DNA from: a virus
Virus record (IMG/VR): IMGVR_UViG_3300044637_001673
Span: 1 to 50,714 of that record
Strand: one strand, 5' to 3'
DNA length: 50,714 bases
The position numbers and the translations under genes are program-made. The notes beneath the pieces are model-generated. The model saw nothing but the letters and a program-made list of their open reading frames with translations, did no database searches and was not told where the DNA came from. Shown piece by piece: positions 18,655 through 44,544 of this stretch. Position 1 is the stretch's first letter. Each line of letters starts with the position of its first letter.

Positions 18655-18679
18655 TCAAAATTTATTATGTATTAAATTA

Positions 18680-18819: not shown

Positions 18820-19018
18820 AATAAAATTAACTACAAGAACACATTTAATCACGAATTAGTGTCCAACCTTCCTTGTATCAAAACCCAAAATCGTGTATAA
18901 TGGGGACACATACCTTAACCCTCGTTAATTTTTGGTTAGCTAACCTCCGGGTGGCCAAACCCAGTTTTTTGTGTGGGAGACTCAACCTATTTTACCGGTG
19001 GGAGTCATCAACCAATCA
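18820..19018 (-). ncRNA. structured leader or small RNA, ~200 nt
   Basis: Starts at the promoter 19024-19055. Visible pairings: GACTCCC ... near-palindrome at its start, CTGGGT/ACCCGG, GGTTAGCTAACC palindrome, TTAAC/GTTAA. No ORF. A second promoter-like site follows at 18780 and the terminator at 18627-18654 ends the unit. Confidence 0.45.
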
Positions 19019-19023
19019 CAATA

Positions 19024-19055
19024 CAAATATATAACTTATTTTTTAATTAATCAAA
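19024..19055 (-). promoter_or_regulatory. host-type promoter for RNA at 18820-19018
   Basis: Minus strand TTTG, 20 nt, TATATTTG. Lies immediately after the stop codon of the 19058-20170 gene. Confidence 0.7.
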
Positions 19056-19057
19056 TA

Positions 19058-20170
19058 TTATGGTTGATAATTATCTCCGTAATATAGAGTGAAATCTACT
19101 AATTGATCTGTAATTCCACCATAAAGTACTTCATTAATAATTTCTTCAAGACCTCTTGAATCCATTTCACCTAATTCATTAATTACCTCTTCCGGTGTGT
19201 GTGCGTTTAAGTAATCAATTGGGTCTTCAAAATTATCATTAATTAACCACGATAAACCATGAATAATTTCAAATGATGACCCATCAACATCTGGTACAAA
19301 ATTGTTTCTTATTTCTTTTTCTAAATTACTGATAAATTCATCTGTCGCGTCTTCATCATCTAAATCTATATCAAATGGTAAATAATCATATACATCACTA
19401 TCTAAAAAAAATGAAGTACAATTGTTTACAATATCATTAATAGTATCATTATCAAGGATTATAGGTTCAATTTCATCAAAATTTTCACTAACCCAATCTA
19501 CAATTTGATTAATAAGTCGTTGTCTTTCACTTTTTTCTGGTGCTTTCAATCCTCTAGCATCATGAATTTCTTGTAATTTTTCAATAATTTCAGTATATCT
19601 TGGATGTTTCTTTGGATAAGACTCTTCAGATAATCTTGAAGTTGACATACAATTATTAACCGCATTACACCAATCAGGCTCTCCAGTTATTTTTACGTGA
19701 TAAGAAAATTTATGATTCGGATCATCTTGTGGTTTATTTTTGAATATCCAAAAGAACTCAGTTCCAGTATCATTATGTCTTCTCCAATATGAACTATCAT
19801 CTTTTGCGGTTGTACACCATTTAGATCCTGCACCATATTTACAACTTGCTTCGTGTGTGTTTGCCTTTAATACCAACAAATCTTTATCTTCATAAATTTT
19901 TGTGGCATCCTCTGATTTGGCGGCTTGTTTAATTCTATTTAAATCACCAACCAATTCTTCGTATGAAGAATATTGAGCAAAATCTTTTTTTGATAATTGT
20001 TTTTGGTATTTAAAAACATCATCAATAATTGATAATGCTTTTTCGGGATTCCCACTCCTTTTATTGGCCCACGATTTATATAAATTTTTAACGTGTTCTG
20101 ATTGTTCTTGAATAACTTGTTTAACTATTCTTGTTAAATCAGATTCTGTTAGTCTAATAATTCTTTTCAT
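19058..20170 (-). CDS. tagged putative virion protein with W-C motif domain
   Basis: 370 aa. Tag: [18 protein letters not shown] then VIQE (possible cut after Glu22). Residues ~105-140 hold CKYGAGSKWCTTAKD and the aromatic strand TGTEFFWIFKN; a related ETRWCTSS block occurs in the 41092-42468 protein. The C-terminal 170 residues are acidic and helical. A motif ATATTTAT (20185-20192) is flanked by an 8-bp inverted repeat ATCAACAT/ATGTTGAT before the start. Function unknown; internal head protein is the inference. Confidence 0.75.
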   Translation of the reverse strand: MKRIIRLTESDLTRIVKQVIQEQSEHVKNLYKSWANKRSGNPEKALSIIDDVFKYQKQLSKKDFAQYSSYEELVGDLNRIKQAAKSEDATKIYEDKDLLVLKANTHEASCKYGAGSKWCTTAKDDSSYWRRHNDTGTEFFWIFKNKPQDDPNHKFSYHVKITGEPDWCNAVNNCMSTSRLSEESYPKKHPRYTEIIEKLQEIHDARGLKAPEKSERQRLINQIVDWVSENFDEIEPIILDNDTINDIVNNCTSFFLDSDVYDYLPFDIDLDDEDATDEFISNLEKEIRNNFVPDVDGSSFEIIHGLSWLINDNFEDPIDYLNAHTPEEVINELGEMDSRGLEEIINEVLYGGITDQLVDFTLYYGDNYQP

Positions 20171-20210
20171 ATCAACATTTTAATATAAATATGTTGATAA
20201 TAAAGATTTG

Positions 20211-20291
20211 TACCTCCGGAGAGACTCGAACTCTCACTCCTTTCGGAATCCGGGTCTAAGCCGGATGTGTCTACCGTTCCACCACGAAGGC
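20211..20291 (-). tRNA. tRNA-Leu(TAG)
   Basis: Class II: acceptor GCCTTCG/CGGAGGT, anticodon arm ATCCGG CTTAGAC CCGGAT, variable arm, T-loop TTCGAGT. Confidence 0.9.
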
Positions 20292-20300
20292 CTGTTTTTG

Positions 20301-20372
20301 AGCTCAGGGAGGGATTTGAACCCACATACCACGGTTTTGCAGACCGGGACTTTACCTATCAGACACCTGAGC
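20301..20372 (-). tRNA. tRNA-Cys(GCA)
   Basis: Acceptor GCTCAGG/CCTGAGC, anticodon arm CGGT CTGCAAA ACCG, T-loop TTCAAAT. Confidence 0.9.
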
Positions 20373-20377
20373 ATATA

Positions 20378-20833
20378 TTAACGGCAGTGGTGATCTGCCG
20401 CTTTTGTTGCAATTTGGTTGTCGGGTTTAATGTTTGTTTTATACCCCAAAGATGTTGCCCACCCAACAACAGGTTGAACCAATTTTGAACTGAAATGTTT
20501 TTCTTGACTATTATAATCTAAGTCAATCTCAACTTGTACCTTTACTTTTTTGGTTAACCATTCCGCAACCTCAATTGAATAATCGGCCTCATTCCAAAGA
20601 CGTGTCCATTTGTCTTTAATTTTTTTCACTTTCTGTTTATGTAGTATGTAGTGGACACCACGATTCCCATACCTATAAGCTATTACCGTAACATACACGG
20701 TACTTCTTCTGTGGTTTTGTGAGTCTGTACCGATGTGTACTTCCACCCATGGACATTCTTTTAGAACATCTAAGGTATGTTTTACCACATCAGGAATTGT
20801 TTCACCGTTAACCGTTCTAAATACTCTGTTCAT
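20378..20833 (-). CDS. RNase H-like fold protein (YkuK/DUF458 family)
   Basis: 151 aa from the ATG at 20831-20833 (MNRVFRTVNGETIPDV); the longer frame only translates the tRNA-Phe. VEVHIGTDSQNHRRSTVYVT gives the first acidic strand, EIDLDYNSQEKHFSSKLVQP the second, and ATKAADHHCR the C-terminal helix with Asp/His, as in the YkuK-like RNase H-fold family. Placed between tRNA-Phe and tRNA-Cys, so an RNA-related task such as tRNA processing is possible but not shown. Confidence 0.75.
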   Translation of the reverse strand: MNRVFRTVNGETIPDVVKHTLDVLKECPWVEVHIGTDSQNHRRSTVYVTVIAYRYGNRGVHYILHKQKVKKIKDKWTRLWNEADYSIEVAEWLTKKVKVQVEIDLDYNSQEKHFSSKLVQPVVGWATSLGYKTNIKPDNQIATKAADHHCR

Positions 20834-20849
20834 TATTTCTATTTTTTTG

Positions 20850-20925
20850 TGGAACCATGCGGAGTCGAACCGCAACCTCTGGTTTTTCAGACCAGCGTGA
20901 CACACCATACTTACACCATAGTTCC
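20850..20925 (-). tRNA. tRNA-Phe(GAA)
   Basis: Acceptor GGAACTA/TGGTTCC, anticodon arm CTGGT CTGAAAA ACCAG, T-loop TTCGACT. The D arm is a few nt longer than usual. Confidence 0.85.
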
Positions 20926-21711
20926 TTATTTTTTATGTTTATTAACCCAATCATTAATTCTATCAGTACACATTTCACAGTATTCCTCATGTATATCAAA
21001 CCCAATACCTAACCTATCTAATTTTTCACAAGATAATAATGTTGTTCCCGAACCTAAAAATGGATCTAAAACAATATCACCAACAAAAGAATAATATTTT
21101 ATAATTTTATCTGATAACTCTTCAGGGTATGGTGCTAAATGTTTTGATTTAGTTTCGGGGTTTATCGTCCAAACATTACTCCTCTCATAAGTTTCATTAA
21201 CCAGTGATTTTTCTAAAATTTCACCTTTATAAGATCTAACAACTTTATCTATAAGAAAACTTGCCGGTTTTTGAAAAACAAATATTACTTCAGACACTAA
21301 ATTTGGTTTATATGCAACTGGTTTTCTATGTTGGTAAAACCCTCCATTTCTATTTATTGCCGCTCCTTCAGGTTTTACCCACACAATATCATCTAAATAT
21401 TTCCAACCAATTTCTTTCATTATTGGAAAAAAATCAAAGGGTATTGGTAATCTTTTACTCTCACAATTCCTATTTTCTCTAGGTATTATTACCGGAGATA
21501 AATTAACAACACACATTCTACCTTCTTTAGTTACTCTAAACACTTCAGAAAACACTTCTTTAAGAAACGATAAATAATCATCATATGTTTCCCATGTACT
21601 ATAAGATTTTGCATTAAAGTATGGTGGTGATGTCCAAGTTAAGTGTATTGTTTCATTTTTAATGTCTTTAATACCTAAAAGACAATCTTTACATATAATT
21701 TTTTGTTTCAT
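20926..21711 (-). CDS. DNA methyltransferase (TSPPY, amino-methyl type)
   Basis: 261 aa. TSPPYF (residues 27-32) is the catalytic motif IV and DPFLGSGTT near residue 215 the AdoMet-binding motif I, in the beta-class order (IV first). TSPPY fits N4-cytosine or N6-adenine methylation. Overlaps the HNH gene by 4 nt; together they could be a small restriction-modification unit, or the enzyme may protect phage DNA. Target unknown. Confidence 0.9.
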   Translation of the reverse strand: MKQKIICKDCLLGIKDIKNETIHLTWTSPPYFNAKSYSTWETYDDYLSFLKEVFSEVFRVTKEGRMCVVNLSPVIIPRENRNCESKRLPIPFDFFPIMKEIGWKYLDDIVWVKPEGAAINRNGGFYQHRKPVAYKPNLVSEVIFVFQKPASFLIDKVVRSYKGEILEKSLVNETYERSNVWTINPETKSKHLAPYPEELSDKIIKYYSFVGDIVLDPFLGSGTTLLSCEKLDRLGIGFDIHEEYCEMCTDRINDWVNKHKK

Positions 21712-22142
21712 GTGTTAAATGTTCTTGCCGAATCTTTTTTATTAGAGCAGTCACCGCTCTCAATACTTTTTCTATTGTGACACAATTTACAATAAGTTTT
21801 AACATTTTCTACTGAATTGTTATTGTGGTCTCCATCTATGTGATCTAAATCTAAACATCCAACCTCAAACCCTTTCCAATTTTCTATACTAGGAACAGGA
21901 CACATAAAACCTAAATGACCGTCTATATTTTCACAATATTTTTTTTTATGTATAGTGATACCCTCAATAACAACACCCTTCTTTCTTGCCTTTTGGCAAC
22001 GTGGACATTCAGATTTAAAAGACCAATTGGACCAATTTCTTACAGCAACATTGTTATTGCATCCAGGATTTATACATTTTGGTAATTTATGTCCTAAATC
22101 ATAAAATTTTTGTTTTTGTATGTTAGAAATTTTTAAAGTCAT
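21708..22142 (-). CDS. HNH endonuclease
   Basis: 144 aa. Zinc-binding pairs CINPGC and CPRC in the first third, then the HNH core LDLDHIDGDHNNNSVENVK, YCKLCHNRKS. First gene of the unit behind the promoter at 22164 and overlapped by the methyltransferase start (ATGA). Could be a restriction nuclease paired with that enzyme, or a free-standing homing nuclease in the tRNA array; the sequence does not decide. Confidence 0.85.
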   Translation of the reverse strand: MTLKISNIQKQKFYDLGHKLPKCINPGCNNNVAVRNWSNWSFKSECPRCQKARKKGVVIEGITIHKKKYCENIDGHLGFMCPVPSIENWKGFEVGCLDLDHIDGDHNNNSVENVKTYCKLCHNRKSIESGDCSNKKDSARTFNT

Positions 22143-22163
22143 ATTTTTTAATATTTAATAAAA

Positions 22164-22194
22164 CAAATATAAGTATTTTTTTTTAATTAACAAA
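22164..22194 (-). promoter_or_regulatory. host-type promoter for HNH-methyltransferase unit
   Basis: Minus strand TTTG, 19 nt, TATATTTG, 21 nt before the HNH start codon. Confidence 0.75.
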
Positions 22195-22207
22195 ATTAAA
22201 TTTTTAG

Positions 22208-22279
22208 CGCGTCCCCAAGGTCTCGAACCCTGACCGATGGGTTTGGAATCCATCATGCTACCTATTACACCAGAGACGC
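22208..22279 (-). tRNA. tRNA-Trp(CCA)
   Basis: Acceptor GCGTCTC/GGGACGC; anticodon loop TTCCAAA gives CCA with an A31-C39 mismatch; T-loop TTCGAGA. Confidence 0.8.
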
Positions 22280-22317
22280 AAATTGCCCGACCTAGCTCGG
22301 GACCGACATCGGATCCG

Positions 22318-22389
22318 TACCCCCTCAGAGACTCGAACTCCGACCTGACACCTTAGAAGAGTGTTGTACTTCCATTATACGAAAGGGGC
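22318..22389 (-). tRNA. tRNA-Arg(TCT), copy 1
   Basis: Acceptor GCCCCTT/AGGGGGT, anticodon arm ACACT CTTCTAA GGTGT, T-loop TTCGAGT. Confidence 0.88.
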
Positions 22390-22395
22390 GAATAA

Positions 22396-22564
22396 AAGAT
22401 GATGAATGACTTTATCAGGAATCCCGCTACTTCTATCAAAGCTTCACACACCATTAGAGAGTTGGGTTATTACATCAATACAATTAAGATTGAATACCTT
22501 TCCTTAGTTTGTACCCTTGCGACACGTCTCTCCACGTCTGTCATTCTACGCTTCTTATCATCTT
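22396..22564 (-). ncRNA. spacer RNA closed by 8-bp stem
   Basis: AAGATGAT (22396-22403) pairs with ATCATCTT (22557-22564); the domain exactly fills the gap between two tRNA-Arg genes. No credible gene inside. Confidence 0.5.
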
Positions 22565-22567
22565 TTG

Positions 22568-22639
22568 TACCTTCGGAGAGGGTCGAACTCCCAATCATTA
22601 GATTCGTATTCTAAGGCTTTTCCATTAAGCTACGAAGGT
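22568..22639 (-). tRNA. tRNA-Arg(ACG)
   Basis: Acceptor ACCTTCG/CGAAGGT, anticodon arm TTAGA ATACGAA TCTAA, T-loop TTCGACC. Confidence 0.9.
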
Positions 22640-22645
22640 ATGTTG

Positions 22646-22719
22646 TGTGTATGATGGGTCACGATCCCACGACCTCCGCTTTCACAGAACGACACTCTAC
22701 CAACTGAGCTACATACACC
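22646..22719 (-). tRNA. tRNA-His(GTG)
   Basis: Extra 5' G (G-1), acceptor GTGTATG/CATACAC, anticodon loop CTGTGAA. T-loop is ATCGTGA: positions 54 and 58 are swapped to A and T. Confidence 0.85.
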
Positions 22720-22725
22720 ATATAG

Positions 22726-22795
22726 TACCGATAAAGGGTATCGAACCCAATGACATCCAGGATATGAGCCCGGACCGGAAACCTCTCCTATCGGC
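22726..22795 (-). tRNA. tRNA-Met or Ile2(CAT)
   Basis: Acceptor GCCGATA/TATCGGT, anticodon arm CCGGG CTCATAT CCTGG, T-loop TTCGATA. Elongator Met or lysidine-modified Ile cannot be told apart here. Confidence 0.85.
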
Positions 22796-22800
22796 ATTTG

Positions 22801-22886
22801 CGGAAGACATTGGAATCGAACCAAACACCCTTACGGGTACATCTCGCTTAGCAGGCGGACCCTATCGCCATCAAGGTTTATCTTCC
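22801..22886 (-). tRNA. tRNA-Ser(GCT)
   Basis: Class II with variable arm ACCC/GGGT; anticodon loop CTGCTAA; acceptor GGAAGAT/GTCTTCC; T-loop TTCGATT. Confidence 0.9.
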
Positions 22887-22890
22887 GTAG

Positions 22891-22927
22891 AGTGTGGTAC
22901 TCCTGCAGTAGTTGGGGCACCCACACT
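22891..22927 (-). ncRNA. 7-bp hairpin in spacer
   Basis: AGTGTGG and CCACACT enclose 23 nt between tRNA-Ser and tRNA-Ile. Confidence 0.45.
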
Positions 22928-22944
22928 AGTTATTCCCCTTTTTG

Positions 22945-23017
22945 TGTTCACGACGGGTTACGATCCCATTACCTCCGACGTATCAGATCGGCGCTCTACC
23001 AATTGAGCTACGTGAGC
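22945..23017 (-). tRNA. tRNA-Ile(GAT)
   Basis: Anticodon arm CCGAT CTGATAC GTCGG; acceptor GCTCACG/CGTGAAC with one mismatch; swapped T-loop ATCGTAA. Confidence 0.88.
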
Positions 23018-23042
23018 TGGTACGTATTTAGGGGTATTTCTT

Positions 23043-23092
23043 AACCACCCCCTCAGCTCGTCAGCGGACTCGTCAGTCACTTCTCGGTGGTT
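23043..23092 (-). ncRNA. 7-bp closed spacer hairpin with inner repeat
   Basis: AACCACC/GGTGGTT; the loop contains CTGACGAG-like sequence twice on the minus strand, forming a GTC/GAC hairpin. Confidence 0.45.
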
Positions 23093-23093
23093 G

Positions 23094-23166
23094 CGGACAA
23101 GACAGGGTACGATCCTGTAACCTATCGGTTAACAGCCGATTGCTCTACCAATTGAGCTACTTGTCC
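23094..23166 (-). tRNA. tRNA-Asn(GTT)
   Basis: Acceptor GGACAAG/CTTGTCC, anticodon arm ATCGG CTGTTAA CCGAT, swapped T-loop ATCGTAC. Confidence 0.9.
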
Positions 23167-23173
23167 ATTGTGG

Positions 23174-23256
23174 TGGGAGAGGAGGGACTCGAACCCCCAA
23201 GGTCTCACGACGACAGATTTACAGTCTGCTGAGCCAACCAATTGCTCAACTCTCCC
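23174..23256 (-). tRNA. tRNA-Tyr(GTA)
   Basis: Class II: acceptor GGGAGAG/CTCTCCC, anticodon arm CAGA CTGTAAA TCTG, variable arm, T-loop TTCGAGT. Confidence 0.92.
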
Positions 23257-23266
23257 TTATTTTTTG

Positions 23267-23340
23267 TACACCCTACAGGGGTCGAACCTGTGACCTGTAG
23301 TTTGTAATACTACCGCTACTACCATCTGAGCTAAGAGTGT
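23267..23340 (-). tRNA. tRNA-Val(TAC)
   Basis: Acceptor ACACTCT/AGGGTGT, anticodon arm GTAGT ATTACAA ACTAC, T-loop TTCGACC. Confidence 0.9.
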
Positions 23341-23343
23341 GTT

Positions 23344-23559
23344 TTATGATGTTATCATTTTAATACTTTCAATTGTGGTAGAGTACATTCCTTGTTCTAA
23401 ATAAGGTTTACTATCATTCAAAAGTCTTAGAACGGTGTTTGTTGCTTGTTCTTGAGTTTGTCCTTGTTTTATTAATCGTACAATAGCTCTTTCACATTCT
23501 TCACCAACTTTAACCATTCCTTTTGGTAGTCCTTTCTTAATTTCTTTTACTGTTTTCAT
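23344..23559 (-). CDS. hypothetical protein, 71 aa, inside tRNA array
   Basis: Helical, basic N-terminus (MKTVKEIKKGLPKGMVKVGE), no known motif. A full promoter (23564-23594) ends 4 nt before its ATG, so its mRNA is likely leaderless and continues into tRNA-Val, Tyr and Asn. It could help RNA handling, but only position supports that. Confidence 0.7.
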   Translation of the reverse strand: MKTVKEIKKGLPKGMVKVGEECERAIVRLIKQGQTQEQATNTVLRLLNDSKPYLEQGMYSTTIESIKMITS

Positions 23560-23563
23560 ATTA

Positions 23564-23594
23564 CAAAGATAATACTTTTTTTTAATCTACCAAA
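23564..23594 (-). promoter_or_regulatory. host-type promoter, leaderless arrangement
   Basis: Minus strand TTTG, 19 nt, TATCTTTG, TAAT, ATG. Segment similar to the promoters at 17153 and 18403. Confidence 0.75.
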
Positions 23595-23602
23595 TTTTTT
23601 TG

Positions 23603-23677
23603 TGATCCCGGTGAGGCTCGAACTCACGACCCCTCCATTAAAAGTGGAGTGCTCTAAACCAACTGAGCTACGAGATC
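23603..23677 (-). tRNA. tRNA-Lys(TTT)
   Basis: Acceptor GATCTCG/CGGGATC, anticodon arm TCCA CTTTTAA TGGA, T-loop TTCGAGC. Confidence 0.92.
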
Positions 23678-23735
23678 TTCTGTTTGTCATACTTGTCACT
23701 TTCCATAACACTTATTTTTATTTGTTTATTATTAG

Positions 23736-23810
23736 TCGGGATACCAGGACTCGAACCTGGATGATGTCCACTTCCCAAAAGTGGCGACTTACCAATTAGT
23801 CCACATCCCG
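23736..23810 (-). tRNA. tRNA-Pro(TGG)
   Basis: Acceptor CGGGATG/TATCCCG, anticodon arm CCACT TTTGGGA AGTGG, T-loop TTCGAGT. Confidence 0.9.
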
Positions 23811-23816
23811 TTATAG

Positions 23817-23900
23817 AGGAAGAAGTAGGTGTCGATCCCAATACCTTTCGGTACCGCCCGTTTTCAAGACGGGGTCACAGGCCGCTGTGATTCATCTTCC
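23817..23900 (-). tRNA. tRNA-Ser(TGA)
   Basis: Class II: anticodon arm CCCGT CTTGAAA ACGGG, variable arm ACC/GGT, acceptor GGAAGAT/TTCTTCC, T-loop ATCGACA (A at 54). Confidence 0.85.
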
Positions 23901-23906
23901 TTATTG

Positions 23907-23978
23907 ATCTCCCCCAAGGTCTCGAACCTTGATTCTCTGGTCCAAAACCAGGTGTCCTGCCAATTAGACGAGGGGAGA
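23907..23978 (-). tRNA. tRNA-Gln(TTG)
   Basis: Acceptor TCTCCCC/GGGGAGA, anticodon arm CTGG TTTTGGA CCAG, T-loop TTCGAGA. Confidence 0.9.
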
Positions 23979-23992
23979 ATTATGAAGCCAAT

Positions 23993-24005
23993 ATGTCAAA
24001 GAACT
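23993..24005 (-). promoter_or_regulatory. boxA-like antitermination site
   Basis: Minus strand AGTTCTTTGACAT between tRNA-Thr and tRNA-Gln. Confidence 0.5.
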
Positions 24006-24018
24006 TTTTCTTTTTTTG

Positions 24019-24091
24019 AGGTTCCTATCAGGTTCGAACTGATGACTCCGGGTTACAAAGCCGGGATATTACCAAACTATACTAAGGAACC
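24019..24091 (-). tRNA. tRNA-Thr(TGT)
   Basis: Acceptor GGTTCCT/AGGAACC, loop TTTGTAA gives TGT with a C31-C39 mismatch, T-loop TTCGAAC. First tRNA of the main array after the terminator. Confidence 0.85.
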
Positions 24092-24372: not shown

Positions 24373-25065
24373 TTATACAAATTCTTCGTCATCAAAATCT
24401 TCAAAATCATCATCATCAAAATCTGAATCATAATATGGATTATACATACTTAAATCTTTATATTCGTCAAATGGTTCTTCTTCCGACCCCATTAATTCCG
24501 TACCTTCAAAGTCTCTCATTCCTGGTCTTAAATTTCTTTTGTAATCATCTTTTTTAATTGTTCTAAATTCTCTTGGGTTGTAGTCTTTGAATCTTTTTTT
24601 GGTAATAAAATCATCAAACCCTTCACCTAATTCTTCATCTCTTCCTTTTGTTTTTGCAAATGCTTTCTTTAAATCATTAACAGAGTGTCCTCCAATTGAA
24701 TCGTATGGTTCGTCCTCATCGGCATTATAAAAACCTTCTTTTTCCATTAAACTTTCAATATTGTTAGCCAAATTATCATTACCTTCATCATATAAAGCAT
24801 CAACAATATCTTCCTCGCCCATTAAATTAATATCGTGTAAATCATATCCACATTCATTTTCAAGAAAATCTCTTGCTTCTTCAATTAAATCTTGAAGTTC
24901 TTCTTCACCCATATCGGTTTCACCCCACTCTTCGTCGCCTTCATCCTCATCGTCAAAAAATCTACCTCTCATGGTTCCATAGTCTTCTTCATCCTCCATT
25001 TCATTTATTGTTCGTCTAACAATTCTTGTTAAATCTGATTCTGTAAGTCTTATTATTTTTTTCAT
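24373..25065 (-). CDS. tagged acidic protein, 230 aa
   Basis: Tag [18 protein letters not shown], then TINE (possible cut after Glu22). The rest is strongly acidic ([21 protein letters not shown]-terminus with runs of Asp/Glu) with few basic residues. An acidic core protein packed with the DNA, or a scaffold, would fit; no fold is recognised. The first 45 nt of the gene are nearly the same as in the next gene and in 19058-20170. Confidence 0.75.
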
Positions 25066-25073: not shown

Positions 25074-25325
25074 TTAAAATCTATTTATCGGTCCTTCCTT
25101 TTCTTTTGACCATCTTTTTGAAACGTCACTTCTTAAATCCATATCACCTTCTATTTCATCAGCGATTTGTCTTAATATAAATACTTTAGATTCTTGAGAT
25201 TCATATGAATCCCATAATATATCTTTTATATCATTATAAAGTGGATTTTTATCCTTATCTTCTTTTAATGTCTTTCTAACAATTCTTGCCAAATCTGATT
25301 CTGTAAGTCTAATTATTTTTTTCAT
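25074..25325 (-). CDS. tagged small protein, 83 aa
   Basis: Tag [18 protein letters not shown], then TLKE (possible cut after Glu22), leaving about 60 residues of helical, charged protein. ATATTTAT at 25340-25347 precedes the start. Function unknown. Confidence 0.72.
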
Positions 25326-25355: not shown

Positions 25356-26312
25356 TTAAGAAAGTCCATGAACTCTAATACTAAGTTCTTCGAGTTTATT
25401 AATATCTTGAATAATTACAAAATTATCTTCCATACCATATTGTTCTCTTGTATCATCAACATCTTCTTCACTCATATAGTTATTTGATTTTAATATCATA
25501 TAGTAATCAAAAGAAGGATCTTCATTTTCAATATCATCAAAAAAATCTTTTTCTATTGGTCTATCAATATATTTTTCTAAACTTTTTCCAAGAATTAAAT
25601 AATCAACCCTTTCAATATTGTAATAATAATTATAACTATCAACTTCTCCACTTCCACCACAATAATCACAATCTTCGTGTCCATTTCCATCACAAGAATC
25701 ACAACTTTCAGTACCACTACCTTCACAAGTACCACAATTAAAATTTCCTTGTCCACCACAAGAATCACATCTTTCGGCACCTTCACCATCGCAATGAACA
25801 CATTCTACCTCAACTTCAACTTCGTCCCCTTCATCATCTTCTTCTGTTTCAATTTCAGTTCCTTTACCATCACAATACCTACACTCTTGAGATCCTTCAC
25901 CGCTACAATCATAACATTCTTCAGTTCCTTCACCATCACAATATCTACAATCTTGTTCACCACTACCACCACAACTAGAACAATCATAATACCCATCACC
26001 AGCACAGTCGTCACATGTTTCACTTTTATAACCCATTTCATCATATATATCAACTGTTAAAACATAAAGATTATTAATAATTCTATTGATGTCTTCAGGT
26101 TTAAGTCTTGGCTTATTAATTATAAACCATGATGTGATAATGATTTTAAGTTTATCTGCAGTTGTTGGTGCTTTTGACATGATTAATTGACCAAAATGGT
26201 CACTTGATGCCAATTGTTTTATTTTAGTTCTTGTTATTGCTTTATCACTTAATTCGGACTCGGCTAAATTGGCTAAAGTTTTTGCAAGTGAATATATCTG
26301 TCTAAATTCCAT
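25356..26312 (-). CDS. zinc-finger protein with ten DnaJ-type CxxCxGxG repeats
   Basis: 318 aa. Residues ~100-225 carry ten CxxCxGxG units in two groups of five (CDDCAGDG to CRYCDGKG; CVHCDGEG to CDYCGGSG) split by an acidic linker. DnaJ itself has four. There is no J domain. The N-terminal 100 residues are helical (MEFRQIYSLAKTLANLAE, ending in L-A-E like the tag family) and the C-terminus is acidic. May hold unfolded protein or bind a partner. ATATTTAT at 26318-26325. Confidence 0.85.
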   Translation of the reverse strand: MEFRQIYSLAKTLANLAESELSDKAITRTKIKQLASSDHFGQLIMSKAPTTADKLKIIITSWFIINKPRLKPEDINRIINNLYVLTVDIYDEMGYKSETCDDCAGDGYYDCSSCGGSGEQDCRYCDGEGTEECYDCSGEGSQECRYCDGKGTEIETEEDDEGDEVEVEVECVHCDGEGAERCDSCGGQGNFNCGTCEGSGTESCDSCDGNGHEDCDYCGGSGEVDSYNYYYNIERVDYLILGKSLEKYIDRPIEKDFFDDIENEDPSFDYYMILKSNNYMSEEDVDDTREQYGMEDNFVIIQDINKLEELSIRVHGLS

Positions 26313-26512: not shown

Positions 26513-26803
26513 TTATAGTTCTTGAACTTGAATCATAACCCAATCAACCTCACCTTCAGTTAAATGTCCTAGTACGTCATTAGTAATATGTGTGTTGTAA
26601 GATATTTCCCAATCTTTTTTATTACCATAAATTATCGCAACTTCCCATTCACTATCATTTGATGTGTAGGAAGAAAAACTTTTGGATATTGGGTTTTTAT
26701 ATCTAACAACAGACACCCCATAACCATTTGGGAAAAATAATAGTCCGTGTACACCCTCACCAAAAGAATGTGGTTTAAATTCTATGTCTTTAAATGATTT
26801 CAT
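26513..26803 (-). CDS. hypothetical protein, 96 aa
   Basis: Strand-rich small protein (GEGVHGLLFFPNGYGVSVVR). Overlaps the upstream gene by 1 nt. I recall similar short proteins in phages, without known function. Confidence 0.65.
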   Translation of the reverse strand: MKSFKDIEFKPHSFGEGVHGLLFFPNGYGVSVVRYKNPISKSFSSYTSNDSEWEVAIIYGNKKDWEISYNTHITNDVLGHLTEGEVDWVMIQVQEL

Positions 26804-27302: not shown

Positions 27303-27857
27303 ATGAAAAAAGAAGAGTTAGAAAAATTTATTGAAGATGGTAAATCTTTTAATCAAATTAGTAAAGAAACAGGTAAATCATTAACCACTGTTAGGTATTG
27401 GGCTAAAAAAAATAGTTTGGAGTCTAAGCATGTCCAGTTTAAATATAATGAGAAAAAAGGAGTTAATCCTGAAAGAAAATGTCCTAAATGTAAGTTGGTC
27501 TTACCTTCCGATCAGTTCTATAAACGTAGAGGGGTTGAATTTTCATCAACATACTGTAAAATTTGTACGTCTGATCAGTCTTTAAATAGAATGCAAAAAC
27601 TTAAAAAACAAATGGTTGATTATAAAGGTGGTTCTTGTCAAATATGTGGGTATGATAAGTATACAGGTGCGTTAGAATTCCACCATACAGATCCGAAACA
27701 AAAAGATTTTAATTTATCCAGTTTAAAAAGGTATTCATTTAACGATATAGTAAAATCTGAGTTGGACAAGTGTGTTCTTGTTTGTGCAAACTGTCATAGA
27801 GAAGTACACGCTAAAATAGTAGTCCCGCCTGGACTCGAACCAGGAATAGAAGATTAG
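27303..27857 (+). CDS. HNH endonuclease, plus strand
   Basis: 184 aa. Residues 1-40 look like a helix-turn-helix (SFNQISKETGKSLTTVRYWA), then zinc pairs CPKC ... CKIC, CQIC, and the HNH core EFHHTDPKQKDF ... VCANCHREVH. The last 12 codons (VPPGLEPGIED) are the antisense of the tRNA-Arg at 27820-27891, so the reading frame invades the tRNA gene. A homing nuclease that targets or shares this tRNA site is plausible. ATATTTAT lies about 25 nt upstream. Confidence 0.82.
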   Translation: MKKEELEKFIEDGKSFNQISKETGKSLTTVRYWAKKNSLESKHVQFKYNEKKGVNPERKCPKCKLVLPSDQFYKRRGVEFSSTYCKICTSDQSLNRMQKLKKQMVDYKGGSCQICGYDKYTGALEFHHTDPKQKDFNLSSLKRYSFNDIVKSELDKCVLVCANCHREVHAKIVVPPGLEPGIED

Positions 27858-27891
27858 AAATCTACTGTGATATCCCTTTCACCACGGAACC
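27820..27891 (-). tRNA. tRNA-Arg(TCT), copy 2
   Basis: Acceptor GGTTCCG/CGGGACT, anticodon loop TTTCTAA with one stem mismatch, T arm CCTGG TTCGAGT CCAGG. Overlaps the 3' end of the plus-strand HNH gene. Confidence 0.85.
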
Positions 27892-28151: not shown

Positions 28152-28451
28152 TTATGTACCAATAATAAGACCACCTAAGTCAAGACCTGCCGTTCCTTTT
28201 AGTCTATCTTCAACTTCTCCGTACATGTATGATTTAACTACTGCGGTGATTGATTGTTCAGATTGAGCAATTTTTGTCTCCATCCAATCTTCAAGTTCTT
28301 CACCTTCTTCCATCATTTCCCACATCTTATAAGCTAAAGTCGCAATTGTAAATAATTGTTGTTTAGCCATATAAGAACCTTCCTCATGGTTTTCTTTAAG
28401 AATTTTTACCATTCTCTCAAGTTGTTCTTCTGTTATAATAATTTTACTCAT
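28152..28451 (-). CDS. tagged small protein, 99 aa
   Basis: Tag variant MSKIIITEEQLERMVKILKE (possible cut after Glu20). The rest is helical (QLFTIATLAYKMWEMMEEGE) and ends GLDLGGLIIGT. Together with 28460-28990 it forms a two-gene unit ended by a terminator. Probably virion-associated, by the tag. Confidence 0.7.
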   Translation of the reverse strand: MSKIIITEEQLERMVKILKENHEEGSYMAKQQLFTIATLAYKMWEMMEEGEELEDWMETKIAQSEQSITAVVKSYMYGEVEDRLKGTAGLDLGGLIIGT

Positions 28452-29016: not shown

Positions 29017-29409
29017 TTACCATGTTCTACATGCCCAATATCTTGGTTTCCATCTTGGTCCAGGATTATCACAATTATGTCTTGCTCTGAAAGATCTTCT
29101 TCTTTCAGGATTGTTTTTCTTTATGACCATCCTTTTACCTTTAGCTGATTTACCACCAAAACCAAAGTTTACTTTAACAACCTTTCCTTTGTCGTTTTTT
29201 ACATAGACTTTGAATTTTTTAATGTCTCCTTGCATTATTTTACCAAGTTGTACTTTTCTTCCTTGGTATTCTGCCTCATTTAAAAAATTATTGTCTTTAA
29301 ATTTGGTTACCTCAACAGATCCATATATATCTTCATATATATAATTGTTATTATTAGTAACATTTTTAATTACATTTATTAGTTGCGATTCTGTTAATTG
29401 AATTATCAT
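29017..29409 (-). CDS. tagged basic protein with W/C-rich end, 130 aa
   Basis: Tag variant MIIQLTESQLINVIKNV; FLNE near residue 45 may be the cut site. A strand region (KKFKVYVKNDKGKVVKVNFG) leads to a basic block NPERRRSFRARHNCDNPGP and an aromatic end RYWACRTW. I recall this RRSFRARHNCD...RYW block as common to phage proteins of unknown role. ATATTTAT at 29414-29421, after a terminator. Confidence 0.75.
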   Translation of the reverse strand: MIIQLTESQLINVIKNVTNNNNYIYEDIYGSVEVTKFKDNNFLNEAEYQGRKVQLGKIMQGDIKKFKVYVKNDKGKVVKVNFGFGGKSAKGKRMVIKKNNPERRRSFRARHNCDNPGPRWKPRYWACRTW

Positions 29410-29826: not shown

Positions 29827-30210
29827 TTAAACAATTTCTTTGTAAGTTATTTTTTTAATATTCACATTATCATAGTGAGTATCTACGCCAAAATATTTAA
29901 TCTCATTTGCTATTATTTTTTCAATTTTGTATCTATAATAACCATTACATCTTACTTTAAATCTTTCACAGTATCTGTTTGAGTAAAAATAACTACCGTA
30001 TACTCTCATATCAACAACCACATCAACTTCATACAAAAAACTACTACCCCAACTGTTTTTATATTTTCTTACATTAACAATTTTTACAACCGCCTTATCA
30101 AGTTCAGAATACGCGGCATTATCTACCTGTTTTAATTCAAAATTTGATTCTTTCAAAACCATTTTGATTGCCTTTACTTGTGTGTCTCTGATTGCTTTTC
30201 CTTCTTTCAT
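29827..30210 (-). CDS. hypothetical protein, 127 aa
   Basis: I choose the ATG at 30208-30210 (MKEGKAIRDTQVKAIKMVLK), since a -10 box ends 4 nt before it; the ATG at 30270 lies upstream of that promoter. The C-terminal half is strand-rich and tyrosine-rich (RVYGSYFYSNRYCERFKVRC). No family recognised. Confidence 0.68.
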   Translation of the reverse strand: MKEGKAIRDTQVKAIKMVLKESNFELKQVDNAAYSELDKAVVKIVNVRKYKNSWGSSFLYEVDVVVDMRVYGSYFYSNRYCERFKVRCNGYYRYKIEKIIANEIKYFGVDTHYDNVNIKKITYKEIV

Positions 30211-30214
30211 GATA

Positions 30215-30245
30215 CAAAGATATGCAAAAATTTTTAATGCACAAA
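30215..30245 (-). promoter_or_regulatory. host-type promoter, leaderless arrangement
   Basis: Minus strand TTTG, 19 nt, TATCTTTG, TATC, ATG. Confidence 0.75.
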
Positions 30246-30302
30246 AAAATGGACAATAATATTTTATCATCCATCAATTTTTTTTACCAGTAATCATGTT
30301 TT

Positions 30303-31246
30303 AAAAAAAGGTTGAGATTACACCTGTTATTGAGAACCTTTAGAGTCATTATTTATTCTACTCTTATCCACTTCCTTTTGAGAAGTATTCCTCAGTGACG
30401 ATTATTTAGGTGAATCACTCCTTGAGGTTTGAATTACTCTCACCTTACTTGACTCTTTCCGAGGATGCCTCCCCAGTTCGTCCTTGCGGGACTAAAGGTT
30501 TTTCGGATAATTACACTCAGACTTGGGATCCTTGTGTGCAATGAACGGCTCATTACTATGTAGTCACCTTTCATTCAAACCTGACAGACACTTTTACATT
30601 TTTACTTTTTAGAGTTTACAGCCTAATGTAAATTAATGTTGTGTGTTGTGGATTGTCAAAGTAGTGGTCTGCCAACCGAGCCAACCCATCTTTTGGACGA
30701 ATCGATACTCAACTACTCTGTGAAATGTCCCCATTTCCATACATCAAGATTACTTCAAAACAATTCCTTTGGTAAGGAATTATTAGGGTTGGTAACAGCA
30801 CCACCTGTACACGAACATACCTTTCGGTTTTAAGTACCCTATCATAATGGAACACGCAATAATAAAATCGGATAATCTTATTTTTTGCATAATTCCTACG
30901 GGTTATTCCTCTTGGTGTTCCCACCTCAAACTGACAACCCACATTGCCAGTTCGTCGAACCACTTTCCCTACAGCGTTGCCCTCGGTACTAAAGGTTAAA
31001 CGGTATCCCGCTTGTGTACTCGACCTCAACAAGTCATAAGACTCACCAAGACGCAAACCCATTACACGTTAGGTTCACTTTATCCCACTTTCGTGGTTTA
31101 TTTTAATGGACCATACACGGCCCAATGACTTAATTTAGTTTCACACTTAAAGAAAGGGAGGTGTTAATTCGCTTTTTATAATTGTGACGACAATTTCAGT
31201 CGGTTTTAGTTTTTCAAAGAACGTTTCAGGTCTTTTCCTGATTTGT
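30303..31246 (-). ncRNA. giant structured RNA candidate (GOLLD/ROOL-like), ~945 nt
   Basis: No credible gene, yet a full transcription unit: promoter at 31251, boxA at 31211, end hairpin AAAGGTT/AACCTTT with T7 at 30303-30341. Hairpins seen directly (minus strand): CCAC-GAAA-GTGG (31085), GGTG-GGAA-CACC (30914), ACC-GAAA-GGT (30819) and GAAATG-GGGA-CATTTC (30722), all GNRA loops; ATTCCTT/AAGGAAT (30763), CTGGCAA/TTGTCAG (30931), AATAAGAT/ATTTTATT inside GCAA/TTGC (30856), GGGCC/GGTCC (near 31110), ATTGT/ACAAT (31181), GAGG/CCTC (30461), TAGGGT/ACCCTA closing 30784-30842. Size, setting beside a phage tRNA array and ornate structure fit GOLLD or ROOL RNAs; homology is untested. Confidence 0.7.
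31211..31223 (-). promoter_or_regulatory. boxA-like antitermination site
   Basis: Minus strand CGTTCTTTGAAAAACT, close to the Bacillus rRNA boxA, about 35 nt into the giant RNA. Confidence 0.6.
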
Positions 31247-31250
31247 TTTA

Positions 31251-31281
31251 CAAAGTTAAGTCTTTTTTTTCAATTAGACAA
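31251..31281 (-). promoter_or_regulatory. host-type promoter of the giant RNA
   Basis: Minus strand TTG, 20 nt, TAACTTTG, followed by GTAAAACAAAT as at the tRNA promoter 18403. A CAGG/CCTG hairpin (31227-31240) separates it from boxA. Confidence 0.75.
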
Positions 31282-31289
31282 GTACTTTT

Positions 31290-31430
31290 TTAATTTTTTT
31301 CTACGTACACCTTGTCAGTTCCGTATTTTTTAGCCATGATATCAGCAAACTGATAATTAGGTGTATATACTTTCTGACCTTCGTTATTGATGTAGGCGTA
31401 AATTTCATTTACAACTTGATCTTCGCTCAT
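31290..31430 (-). CDS. small hypothetical protein, 46 aa
   Basis: ATG at 31428-31430: MSEDQVVNEIYAYINNEGQK ... FADIMAKKYGTDKVYVEKN. Good codon use and its own promoter 50 nt upstream. Its end touches the promoter of the giant RNA. Unknown function. Confidence 0.65.
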   Translation of the reverse strand: MSEDQVVNEIYAYINNEGQKVYTPNYQFADIMAKKYGTDKVYVEKN

Positions 31431-31479
31431 GTCTTAACATTATTTCAATTTATTATTAGGACATTTCCTAATTGTTTTA

Positions 31480-31510
31480 CAAATCTAAAACATTTATTCT
31501 AAACTGTCAA
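31480..31510 (-). promoter_or_regulatory. host-type promoter for the 46-aa gene
   Basis: Minus strand TTG, 20 nt, TAGATTTG. Confidence 0.7.
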
Positions 31511-31579
31511 TTGTTTTTTTAAAAAAATAATGAATTTTGTTAGAGGTATTTTATAAATATATAAATATGTTACAAAAAA

Positions 31580-33319
31580 CTAGTAGTTTGATAAATTTTT
31601 TAATAATTCTATTCCAAGAGTTTTGTGTTTTCCTTTAAGTGGGATTTCAAAAACGTTATTACCTGGAAATTTATACGTTTTTTCGGGTAACATTAACTTT
31701 GTATGTCCAGTATCATCAATACCTAATAATGGGTATGGTACGTTTTTCATAGTTATAGAATTACTTTCAATCATTGTACATTTTTCAGGATGATCCCATT
31801 GTCCTCTATTATCAACAACACAATCTAATTTTTCCATTATATAGTCCCATTCTTTTTCTGATAAAGTTTTACCACCCTTTATATGATTTTTTAAAAGTGA
31901 TTCAACACCTTTTTTATAACTTTCTTTAGATTCTTTTAGGTTAGCTGGTGTCCCTATTTTTTTATTTAATATATCAACAAATGTTTTTTGAATATCCTTT
32001 AATAGATCAACATATTTTCTATCGCCTTCTTGTTTTTTACCACTATATAAAAAATTAATACCTGATATATTTGTAATACATTTATGTCCTCCTGAATTAG
32101 CTTTTATAACATCTAACCCATTAACCGAAACTTTATCTAATAACATTCTTTGTTTTTCACTTAAACTTCTATATAGTCTAGATGATATATTAGATAAAAT
32201 ATCTCTTAAACTTCCATAATCCCCTTGTATTTTAAATGAAGGCGAGTTTCCATATATTGCCATCATATCTTTAAATGTAAACCCAACAGATCCATATTCC
32301 GTTCCCATTTCAGATAATCTTTTTAGAGTACCAAATGTTATTTTTTGTGAGGTTAATTCACCTTTAAAAACATCTAAAACCTCATCTTTTATCTCACCTA
32401 AATCAACACCCTTTAACGCTCTTTCTTTTTTGTATGGATTGCAAGAAGACTGAACCAACCCTTTAGGCCAAGCCATCACAATAAAATCAGCATCAGGATT
32501 ATTTCTAAATGGTGTATACCTATCATAAGATCCCGACTTCACCATTGATCCTCCTCCGTATTGAACAATCACATTACCTTGTACATCAAGATTTTTATAA
32601 TTTTTCATTTTAGAAACGTAGTCTTCTTGATTTTTTACTAAATCATCTATATTCGCATAACCTTTTTCTTTTATGATTTTTTTAATCAAATTTAATATAC
32701 TCAAAAGTGATGGTTTTGCTTCTAAAACAAGTCGCTCTAAAAATTTTGGTTTGTTTTTAAATGCTAATAGTAGTTTGTTTGTTACAAGCCCCATTAACAT
32801 TTTATTTCTTTTCAATGATTCATTTTTATCATATTTGAAGAGATAATTCATTACCATTTCCGGTGTTATGTCATTTACTGCAAAATTTGCAGAATCAACT
32901 GTTGATATTAGGTGTATGTCTTCTGATGTGAATATTTCTTTTGGTGATATACTTTGTGAAATTGTTTCAACGTTTGATCTTGACGATTTGAAGTTTGTTG
33001 CGGTGTCCTTTTCTACACCCGCTTGACTGTCGTGATGGTCTGTATGAATAACAAACATTGGTTTTCCGTGTGCAAAATCAACTAAAACTGGCATAACTTC
33101 ACCACTACCTTCAGGTTTTTTTATTCCAAATTCTTTATCTCCGTATTGAATAATTTCAGCATCAACAACATTAATACCGTTTTGTTCAAGGTAGTTTTTC
33201 ATTGCAATTGCCGTAGTAACCCCATCTAAATCTTGGTGAAAGTATATTTTAGCTTTCTTGTATCTTTTTGCCAGTAAATTAATGTCTCTAATTCCCGATT
33301 CTTTGATTAGTCTTTTCAT
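31580..33319 (-). CDS. DHH-family phosphoesterase, tagged
   Basis: 579 aa. FHQDLDG (Asp30, Asp32), LVD (Asp80) and TDHHDSQAG (Asp93-His94-His95) are DHH motifs I to III for two metals; NSGGHKCITNISG near residue 420 is the DHHA1-like GGH loop. Family members are RecJ or NrnA-type nucleases. The start MKRLIKE is a very short version of the window's tag (I-K-E), so the enzyme may be packaged. The C-terminal 140 residues are an extra domain. ATATTTAT at 33325-33332 follows a terminator. Confidence 0.85.
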   Translation of the reverse strand: MKRLIKESGIRDINLLAKRYKKAKIYFHQDLDGVTTAIAMKNYLEQNGINVVDAEIIQYGDKEFGIKKPEGSGEVMPVLVDFAHGKPMFVIHTDHHDSQAGVEKDTATNFKSSRSNVETISQSISPKEIFTSEDIHLISTVDSANFAVNDITPEMVMNYLFKYDKNESLKRNKMLMGLVTNKLLLAFKNKPKFLERLVLEAKPSLLSILNLIKKIIKEKGYANIDDLVKNQEDYVSKMKNYKNLDVQGNVIVQYGGGSMVKSGSYDRYTPFRNNPDADFIVMAWPKGLVQSSCNPYKKERALKGVDLGEIKDEVLDVFKGELTSQKITFGTLKRLSEMGTEYGSVGFTFKDMMAIYGNSPSFKIQGDYGSLRDILSNISSRLYRSLSEKQRMLLDKVSVNGLDVIKANSGGHKCITNISGINFLYSGKKQEGDRKYVDLLKDIQKTFVDILNKKIGTPANLKESKESYKKGVESLLKNHIKGGKTLSEKEWDYIMEKLDCVVDNRGQWDHPEKCTMIESNSITMKNVPYPLLGIDDTGHTKLMLPEKTYKFPGNNVFEIPLKGKHKTLGIELLKNLSNY

Positions 33320-43413: not shown

Positions 43414-43575
43414 ATGAAACAAAAAAAAGCAACACAAGTTACAGGTTGTAAAACATGTAAACAAGGATTATCTGGTACACAAAAATCATTCATTTTTTTA
43501 GGTATATTCATGTTATTCACCTCCATTTACGGAACTATAGAGTTAATTAGTGACCTCATCTCTATTTTGAAGTAA
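43414..43575 (+). CDS. small membrane protein, 53 aa
   Basis: MKQKKATQVTGCKTCKQGLS then one hydrophobic helix (FIFLGIFMLFTSIYGTIELI). CxxC before the helix. ATATTTAT lies about 30 nt upstream. Its end overlaps the DnaJ gene, on the other strand, by 33 nt. Confidence 0.65.
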   Translation: MKQKKATQVTGCKTCKQGLSGTQKSFIFLGIFMLFTSIYGTIELISDLISILK

Positions 43576-44544
43576 CTCTTTAATCTTGATCCTAATATCC
43601 TGATCAATTTCACTATTTTTTTGGATTGATAGTTTTATGTAAAAATTACCATTTCCTTGTGGGGTTTTGTATCCTTTACCTGGTATTCTCAATGGTTTGT
43701 CAGAATCCAATGTTTTTGGTATTGAAATCCTTAATGTTCCTTCAGGGTGTTCAATATCTATGGTATCATCAGTAATTATGTTTAATACGTCTAATTTTTT
43801 GTTATAAATTAAGTCATACCCACTTTTTTGAAAATCGGTATTTTCATTTAAATTAATTTTTAATATTAAATCCCCATTAGTGTTGGTGCTATTTGAATAA
43901 TCACCTTTACCTCTTACTCTCATAAAATCCCCATTATCTGAATTTGGTGGTATTGATACGTTAATTTTTTGTGGGTTTCTAGTTCTACCATTACCGTTAC
44001 ATGTACCGCAATGTTTAACTATTTTACTACCCGCACCATTACAAACATTACAAGCCATCTGAATTTGTTGTTTAAACATGCCGGTACCAAAAATCTGATA
44101 AATAAACCCGTTACCGTTACAATTATTACAAATGTGTCTATCACCACCAGAACCATTACATGTTACACAATTTTCTAAAACATCTACATTAATTTCTTTT
44201 TTAACACCAAAAAAAGATTCTACAGGCGTTATTTCTAAATTTATAACTTTGTCAGGTGCCCTTCTCTGTTGTCTTTGTCCGTTTACCATTTGTTCAAACA
44301 TACTATGTATGTCAAAACCACCACCACCCATTTCAGAAAAAGGGTTGTTACGTCTCATATTATATTCTTCTCGTTTTTTTACATCCCCAATATTATCGTA
44401 GGCCTCCGCAATGTCTTTAAACTTTTCTTCACCTTCAGGGTTTACATCTGGGTGGTATTGTTTACTTAATTTTCTATAGGCCTTTTTTATTTCGTCTTGT
44501 GATGAATCCTCTAAGACACCTAAAATTTCATAATAATTTTTCAT
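43543..44544 (-). CDS. dnaJ: DnaJ-like co-chaperone
   Basis: 333 aa, close to a full type I DnaJ. J domain 1-65 with HPD at 31-33, short Gly/Met linker, four zinc CxxCxGxG units at ~128-195 (CVTCNGSG, CNNCNGNG, CNVCNGAG, CGTCNGNG), then the substrate-binding C-terminal domain ending in helical residues. It could recruit host DnaK for head or tail assembly. Its start codon overlaps that of a divergent gene (CATG at 44542-44545). Confidence 0.92.
   Translation of the reverse strand: MKNYYEILGVLEDSSQDEIKKAYRKLSKQYHPDVNPEGEEKFKDIAEAYDNIGDVKKREEYNMRRNNPFSEMGGGGFDIHSMFEQMVNGQRQQRRAPDKVINLEITPVESFFGVKKEINVDVLENCVTCNGSGGDRHICNNCNGNGFIYQIFGTGMFKQQIQMACNVCNGAGSKIVKHCGTCNGNGRTRNPQKINVSIPPNSDNGDFMRVRGKGDYSNSTNTNGDLILKINLNENTDFQKSGYDLIYNKKLDVLNIITDDTIDIEHPEGTLRISIPKTLDSDKPLRIPGKGYKTPQGNGNFYIKLSIQKNSEIDQDIRIKIKELLQNRDEVTN

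What the first reader, a model, noticed from the sequence alone, without database searches (positions are those of the whole stretch)
25356..26312. Ten DnaJ-type zinc motifs without a J domain
Seen: two groups of five CxxCxGxG units, more than twice the number in DnaJ, next to tagged genes; a separate true DnaJ is at 43543. Inferred: a holdase or an adaptor that competes with or recruits host chaperones, possibly virion-bound (its start ends in L-A-E).
Basis: partly seen in the sequence, partly recalled or inferred. Interest (0 to 1): 0.52.

Follow-up and report, generated by a model that had tools for sequence, protein, structure and literature searches.

The report
Phage protein with zinc-ladder arm
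A large phage's protein carries ten zinc-binding motifs that most likely fold back on each other as one long hairpin, like a ladder with five zinc rungs, a stretched version of a small zinc module in chaperones whose length seems to change one rung at a time.

Summary
The minus-strand ORF 25356-26312 (318 aa) holds ten CxxCxGxG units as 5+5; shuffles of the same protein never exceed 1. It has no J domain; a true DnaJ lies at 43543-44544. Relatives show what the "two groups of five" are. In virus contigs the arrays are 3+3, 4+4, 5+5, 6+6 or 7+7; arms are equal in 64 of 67 two-arm cluster representatives, against a shuffle maximum of 39. Two phage proteins with about 80% identical flanks carry 3+3 and 4+4. 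In cellular relatives odd spacings recur at mirrored positions. I read this as one hairpin: unit i faces unit 11-i, giving five nested Zn-Cys4 sites, an extended DnaJ/BSD2 cysteine-rich domain. Flanks 1-99 and 222-318 form a confidently predicted base; the tip is a beta-hairpin. Viral arrays are strongly acidic and poor in hydrophobic residues; cellular ones are not acidic. A rigid acidic binding arm is my best functional guess, held weakly. The chaperone idea is untested; the "LAE" tag idea is not supported. I found no description of such ladders in the papers searched. New variant of a known kind.

The parts
25356..26312 (-). whole gene, 318 aa, ATG start at 26312, stop codon 25356-25358
   Evidence: dN/dS about 0.3 between close relatives
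26016..26312 (-). N-terminal flank, residues 1-99 (five helices, then a strand); half of the split base domain
   Evidence: AlphaFold2 ten-residue blocks 77-96 pLDDT
25860..26015 (-). left arm, residues 100-151: units 1-5 (first Cys at 100, 111, 122, 133, 144)
   Evidence: Cys invariant in A2
25803..25859 (-). tip linker, residues 152-170, predicted beta-hairpin (strands 152-158 and 164-170), acidic turn
   Evidence: nearly invariant in the 5 sequences of A1
25647..25802 (-). right arm, residues 171-222: units 6-10 (first Cys at 171, 182, 193, 204, 215), mirror-spaced to the left arm (first Cys of unit i plus last Cys of unit 11-i is always 318)
25359..25646 (-). C-terminal flank, residues 223-318; second half of the split base domain
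   Evidence: AlphaFold2 ten-residue blocks 70-95 pLDDT
25074..25325 (-). neighbouring tagged gene ([18 protein letters not shown]...), 30 bases downstream
   Evidence: tagged genes also follow the ladder gene in L002-L005
24373..25065 (-). neighbouring tagged gene, 230 aa; relatives lie downstream of 7 ladder clusters
26513..26803 (-). upstream neighbour, phrog_4074 (unknown function); relatives lie near 19 ladder clusters
43543..44544 (-). true DnaJ (J domain, zinc domain with four units, C-terminal domain), separate gene

Best explanation
Architecture (my confidence about 0.85): the protein is one phage-specific alpha/beta base domain, split in sequence, from which a single long zinc hairpin projects. 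The two arms run antiparallel, unit i of the left arm faces unit 11-i of the right arm, and each pair of CxxC knuckles holds one zinc. That makes five nested Zn-Cys4 sites, closed by an acidic beta-hairpin at the tip. [quoted passage not shown] Function (confidence about 0.3, inferred): a stiff, polyanionic arm whose length is set in steps of one zinc site and which grips a basic protein partner of phage or host, working without Hsp70. Shown: motif number, equal arms across relatives, mirrored spacing in cellular relatives, split base and tip hairpin in the model. Inferred: zinc content, the exact cysteine pairs, rigidity, and what the arm binds.
For: Equal arms: 111 of 129 virus-contig ORFs have two equal arms (4+4 41, 3+3 39, 5+5 26, 6+6 3, 7+7 2). 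At 60% identity there are 74 clusters; 64 of the 67 two-arm representatives are equal, against a shuffled mean of 19.6 and maximum of 39 in 100,000. The search pattern asks only for three units in a row, so it does not force equal arms. Paired change: L019 (3+3) and L091 (4+4) are 80.6% identical over 191 aligned flank residues, and a flank tree of 69 proteins needs 12 changes of n. Antiparallel rather than parallel: pooled over 125 even arrays, irregular gaps match their mirror partner exactly 27 times and the parallel partner once; shuffled mean 8.05, maximum 18 of 20,000. Internal mirrored cases include L137, L147, L188 and L243. The window model has base strands 97-100 and 222-225 and tip strands 152-158 and 164-170, all mirrored about residue 161; the 3+3 model L014 has three strand pairs mirrored about 121. 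Kinship: PDB profile hits 1exk (DnaJ) and 6ekb/9ci1 (BSD2). Acidic arm: median net charge -23 per 100 aa in 65 viral arrays, -5 in their flanks, +5 in 83 cellular arrays.
Against: AlphaFold2 gives the ten-unit array itself pLDDT under 50, so the model does not show the cysteine pairs; in the 3+3 model the array is only about 57-70. No coordinates were available to measure Cys distances. The mirrored-gap signal comes almost wholly from cellular arrays (25 of 27); viral arrays have too few irregular gaps (2 exact against a shuffled mean of 1.2). Ten of the 16 exactly palindromic irregular arrays share a 13-residue end gap and may be one lineage. Twenty of 83 cellular cluster representatives have an odd unit count. 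A residue covariation test did not single out mirror partners. Foldseek found no confident match for either model. Zinc binding and any partner are untested. The nested pairing in DnaJ (units 1+4, 2+3) is recalled, not from a call.
Confidence: 0.6

Rival explanations
1. One reading: a J-less zinc chaperone, a holdase or an adaptor that competes for or recruits host Hsp70/Hsp40 clients, possibly packaged in the virion. (Rival on function; compatible with the ladder architecture.)
For: Profile kinship to DnaJ and BSD2 zinc domains. J-less relatives ZnJ2 and ZnJ6 are reported holdases (passages). One cellular ladder protein, L179, carries both a J domain and a 5+5 ladder. The phage also encodes its own DnaJ.
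Against: No J domain or DnaJ C-terminal domain by Pfam. The array is acidic and poor in hydrophobic residues. The LAE tag is not conserved at its place and sits in a predicted helix of the base domain.
Confidence: 0.2
2. Nucleic-acid mimic: the acidic rod imitates DNA or RNA and occupies a host or phage nucleic-acid-binding protein such as a nuclease, RNA polymerase or nucleoid protein. (Rival on function; compatible with the ladder architecture.)
For: 37 D/E and 4 K/R in 123 residues; viral arrays median -23 net charge per 100 aa in 65 representatives, cellular arrays +5 in 83, before counting the negative charge expected at each Zn-Cys4 site. The charge is on the array far more than on the flanks.
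Against: No structure resembling a known mimic was found. The number of sites varies from 3 to 7, and it is not clear why a mimic would vary so. No partner known.
Confidence: 0.15
3. Zinc store or redox protein: ten CxxC pairs buffer zinc or exchange disulfides.
For: Twenty invariant cysteines in 17 aligned 5+5 proteins. DnaJ-type zinc domains have reported thiol activity (passages). Some cellular ladders carry what looks like a lipoprotein signal (by eye).
Against: A store would not need strictly equal arms, a fixed 11-residue period or a tip hairpin.
Confidence: 0.1
4. Two separate five-unit domains, or parallel pairing of unit i with unit i+5.
For: Equal arms alone would also fit parallel pairing.
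Against: Odd arms leave one unpaired unit per domain. Irregular gaps match the mirror position 27 times and the parallel position once. Base and tip strands are mirrored.
Confidence: 0.05

Closest known systems
DnaJ/Hsp40 cysteine-rich domain (Pfam PF00684; PDB 1exk)
   Same: CxxCxGxG units; a longer step in the middle; profile match E 4.9e-07, 30.4 bits; PDB hit 1exk
   Different: Four units (two zinc sites) there, ten here; 11-residue period; no J domain and no C-terminal client domain; strongly acidic; below Pfam's cut-off of 32.7 bits
BSD2 and other J-less plastid zinc chaperones (ZnJ2, ZnJ6; Pfam PF25436; PDB 6ekb, 9ci1)
   Same: J-less, compact CxxCxGxG units; scores 27.8 against a cut-off of 27; weak structural overlap of the inner units of the 3+3 model with 6ekb, Z 2.1, rmsd 3.6, 44 aligned
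   Different: Four units there; here ten within a split phage domain; no plastid or Rubisco context
Anti-TRAP (RtpA)
   Same: A short zinc unit of the same motif; weak profile hit to the 3+3 family (3lcz)
   Different: A 53-residue chain that assembles as trimers and dodecamers (search listing of PMC2896485); no long array
HMO-2011-type phage DNA polymerases and the Bacillus phage Riggi protein with two CxxCxGxG motifs
   Same: Phage proteins with a piece of the DnaJ zinc domain (PMC9038755, PMC6918029, PMC3853051, passages)
   Different: Two motifs only; no paired arms reported in the passages read

Membership tests
DnaJ (Hsp40 class A) | N-terminal J domain | tested here: not met
   No J domain in the window protein by Pfam at E 0.1; the window's real DnaJ is found in the same scan
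DnaJ (Hsp40 class A) | C-terminal substrate domain (DnaJ_C) | tested here: not met
   Not found, while found in 43543-44544
DnaJ cysteine-rich domain PF00684 | score at or above Pfam's cut-off (32.7 bits) | tested here: not met
   30.4 bits, E 4.9e-07: related but below the cut-off
BSD2 cysteine-rich domain PF25436 | score at or above Pfam's cut-off (27 bits) | tested here: met
   27.8 bits, a narrow pass on part of the array
BSD2/DnaJ cysteine-rich domain | four units forming two zinc sites | tested here: not met
   ten units, 5+5; hence a variant, not a plain member
BSD2/DnaJ cysteine-rich domain | same fold as 6ekb or 1exk | tested here: inconclusive
   window array modelled at pLDDT under 50; 3+3 model overlaps 6ekb at Z 2.1 only
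BSD2/DnaJ cysteine-rich domain | binds zinc through the cysteines | not testable with these tools
   20 of 20 Cys invariant in 17 sequences is consistent
J-less zinc chaperone (DnaJE class) | prevents aggregation of clients | not testable with these tools
   needs an assay
T4-type packaged (tagged) protein | conserved N-terminal tag ending in a prohead-protease site such as LxE | tested here: not met
   LAE is LVK, IVK, IVK and LMK at the same place in the four relatives of A1; residues 3-20 are a helix of the base domain. The LxE rule is recalled, not from a call

The most novel reading that the evidence does not exclude
A modular zinc-ladder protein architecture, used by phages, bacteria and archaea, in which a two-stranded rod lengthens or shortens by one zinc site when one unit is gained or lost on each strand together. 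Large phages have made the rod polyanionic and use it as a length-tuned nucleic-acid mimic that docks on a host or phage nucleic-acid-binding machine.
Probability: 0.15. Interest if true: 0.8.

Novelty: new variant of a known kind. Interest (0 to 1): 0.55.

Why it matters
If right, a familiar four-motif chaperone module is only the shortest member of a series that runs to at least 16 units (8+8) in cellular genomes and 14 (7+7) in virus contigs. The pairing rule (unit i with unit 2n+1-i) makes a sharp prediction from sequence alone for a large set of unnamed proteins, and it gives protein engineers a metal-stiffened hairpin with a repeat-coded length. The contrast between acidic viral and neutral or slightly basic cellular arms points to a specific viral use that can be tested.

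Tried and rejected
Chance: rejected by shuffles. LAE virion tag: rejected on conservation. Two independent domains or parallel pairing: disfavoured. Adjacent pairing within an arm: rejected because arms of 3, 5 and 7 are common.

Exceptions among the 67 two-arm representatives: L096 (7,5), L125 (7,6) and L075 (3,5). Read by eye, each has a degenerate unit (CEH or CHC at the C-terminus, CSC inside) that restores 7+7, 7+7 and 5+5. This is an after-the-fact reading and I did not count it. Of 129 ORFs, 18 are not two equal arms: 5 are single even runs of 8 or 10 (3 and 2), 6 have an arm cut by a contig end, L104 minus looks like an ordinary DnaJ by eye, L007, L049 and L073 are other shapes, plus the three above. 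The tree used only complete, symmetric, short-type proteins (69 rows), so it counts changes of n but is not a test of symmetry. One search left out ORFs cut by contig ends and chains under six units (206 sequences kept, 148 clusters).

Led nowhere: residue covariation between facing units (inconclusive). PHROGs and NCBIfam gave no name for the window protein. Foldseek against PDB and BFVD gave no confident match; VIA best Z 5.7 to a chain of an archaeal ribosome over residues 1-71, within the range the tool calls common. Cellular gene neighbourhoods looked unrelated by eye. Megablast of window 30000-50000 against named phages: no match.

Literature: searches showed no paper on arrays of more than four such motifs in their listings; most subscription papers are absent from that library. 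Papers opened were seen only as passages; the others were seen only as search listings.

Full report
What is there. The feature is a minus-strand gene, 25356-26312, 318 aa. The plus-strand reading of the same stretch in that frame is full of stops. It has ten exact CxxCxGxG units with an 11-residue period in two groups of five, separated by a 27-residue step. Shuffling gives at most one motif. The gene is under purifying selection (dN/dS about 0.3 for L002-L004 pairs and about 0.35 for those against the window). The window is a 50,714-base virus record, with 23 tRNA calls and a true DnaJ at 43543-44544.

Relatives. Close relatives L002-L005 are 42-62% identical and lie on contigs of 15-214 kb. 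Among named phage records only LR745206.1, a 634,780-base uncultured phage, matched, and only over part of the array. With the six loci already held, this gave 129 ORFs in 126 loci. Two length classes stand out: about 250-325 aa with the array in the middle (the window's kind), and about 470-570 aa with the array at the C-terminus behind another domain.

The arm rule. Arms are equal in 111 of 129 ORFs. Collapsed at 60% identity to 74 clusters, 64 of 67 two-arm representatives are equal; reshuffling right arms gives a mean of 19.6 and a maximum of 39 in 100,000. The three exceptions each contain a degenerate unit that restores equality when read by eye, which I do not count. L019 (3+3) and L091 (4+4) are 80.6% identical in their flanks over 191 residues, so one unit was gained or lost on each arm since they parted. 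A quick flank tree of 69 symmetric short-type proteins needs 12 changes of n; many of its forks are weakly supported.

Which units face each other. Equal arms fit both antiparallel and parallel pairing. The cellular relatives decide. Their irregular spacings are mirrored, for example [13,13,11x5,15,11x5,13,13], [11x4,17,14,17,11x4] and [11x4,17,11,10,11,17,11x4]. Pooled with the viral set (148 clusters, 125 even), irregular gaps match the mirror position exactly 27 times and the parallel position once; shuffles within the right arm give a mean of 8.05 and a maximum of 18. Split by source, cellular arrays carry the signal (25 against 1; shuffled mean 6.9, maximum 16), while viral arrays have too few irregular gaps to tell (2 against 0; shuffled mean 1.2, maximum 3). 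Ten of the 16 exactly palindromic cases share the end gap of 13 and may be one lineage; L101, L137, L147, L169, L188 and L243 do not.

Models. AlphaFold2 on 17 aligned 5+5 proteins gives the window's flanks high confidence (most ten-residue blocks 90-96) and the array under 50. It does show a tip hairpin (152-158, 164-170) and two strands that bracket the array (97-100, 222-225); both pairs are centred on residue 161. The 3+3 relative L014, on 22 sequences, has array blocks of about 57-70 and three strand pairs centred on residue 121. These models agree with one antiparallel hairpin on a split base domain but do not prove the cysteine pairs. PDB sequence profiles find DnaJ (1exk) and BSD2 (6ekb, 9ci1). 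Fold searches found nothing confident.

Function. The viral arrays are polyanionic: median net charge -23 per 100 residues in 65 cluster representatives against -5 in their flanks and +5 in 83 cellular arrays. They are also poor in hydrophobic residues (window array 13% V/I/L/M/F/W/Y of non-Cys non-Gly residues, window DnaJ zinc domain 34%; medians 15.7% in 62 viral and 20.0% in 63 cellular even arrays). That is unlike a surface made to hold unfolded chains, and it fits better an arm that binds a basic partner, or a nucleic-acid mimic. One cellular ladder protein (L179) also has a J domain. Neighbouring genes give no function: the most often recurring ones are phrog_4074 and unnamed small proteins.

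The tag idea. LAE at residues 16-18 is LVK, IVK, IVK and LMK at the same place in the four relatives of A1; 4 of the 16 other rows of A2 have an LAE three residues earlier. It lies in helix 3-20 of the base domain. The downstream neighbours do carry a shared N-terminal motif, and tagged genes also follow the ladder gene in L002-L005, but the ladder protein itself does not carry it.

Verdict. Real, and best explained as a stretched DnaJ/BSD2-type zinc hairpin with five predicted zinc sites. It is new as a variant: no description was found in the searches listed under Tried and rejected. The function is open.

Noticed in passing
window 19058-20170, 24373-25065, 25074-25325 (-): Three otherwise different proteins share an N-terminal tag MK(K/R)[13 protein letters not shown](R/K); looser versions begin 28152-28451 and 29017-29409. 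A literature search for LTESDL found no paper.
   Followed up: partly
window 15340-24091 and 27819-27891 (-): Dense tRNA cluster: 22 ARAGORN calls in 9 kb plus one more at 27.8 kb, one with an odd four-base anticodon.
   Followed up: no
window 12653-14251 (-): PAS-domain histidine-kinase-like protein (PAS_9 and HATPase_c above cut-off), which seems unusual for a phage.
   Followed up: no
window 4533-5480 (-): SPFH/Band 7 protein (E 3.6e-23).
   Followed up: no
window 46917-48065 (-): Protein with duplicated EF-hand/dockerin-like calcium motifs next to CxxC pairs (EF-hand_1 29.2 bits, cut-off 25.4).
   Followed up: no
window 39043-40770 (-): Weak PcfJ-like match (21.7 bits, below cut-off 25).
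   Followed up: no
window 41092-42468 (-) and L075: Block YQFHFPS(N/A)Q(Y/F)MD in the window's leucine-rich-repeat-like protein resembles the stretch just before the ladder in the 1568-residue L075 protein (by eye).
   Followed up: no
L048, L010, L053, L125 (long type), L245: The domain before the C-terminal ladder in long-type proteins also matches Cellulophaga phages (phi38:1 gp037) and up to 15 places in 634-735 kb phage records, some of which may be array matches; N-termini look like short tags (YxxFLxES, by eye).
   Followed up: partly
L179:1319-3664: One protein with a J domain, a 5+5 ladder, apparent membrane helices (by eye) and an LprI domain.
   Followed up: partly
L185, L193, L243: Cellular ladders of 8+8, 7+7 and 6+6 units that begin with what looks like a lipoprotein signal (by eye).
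   Followed up: no
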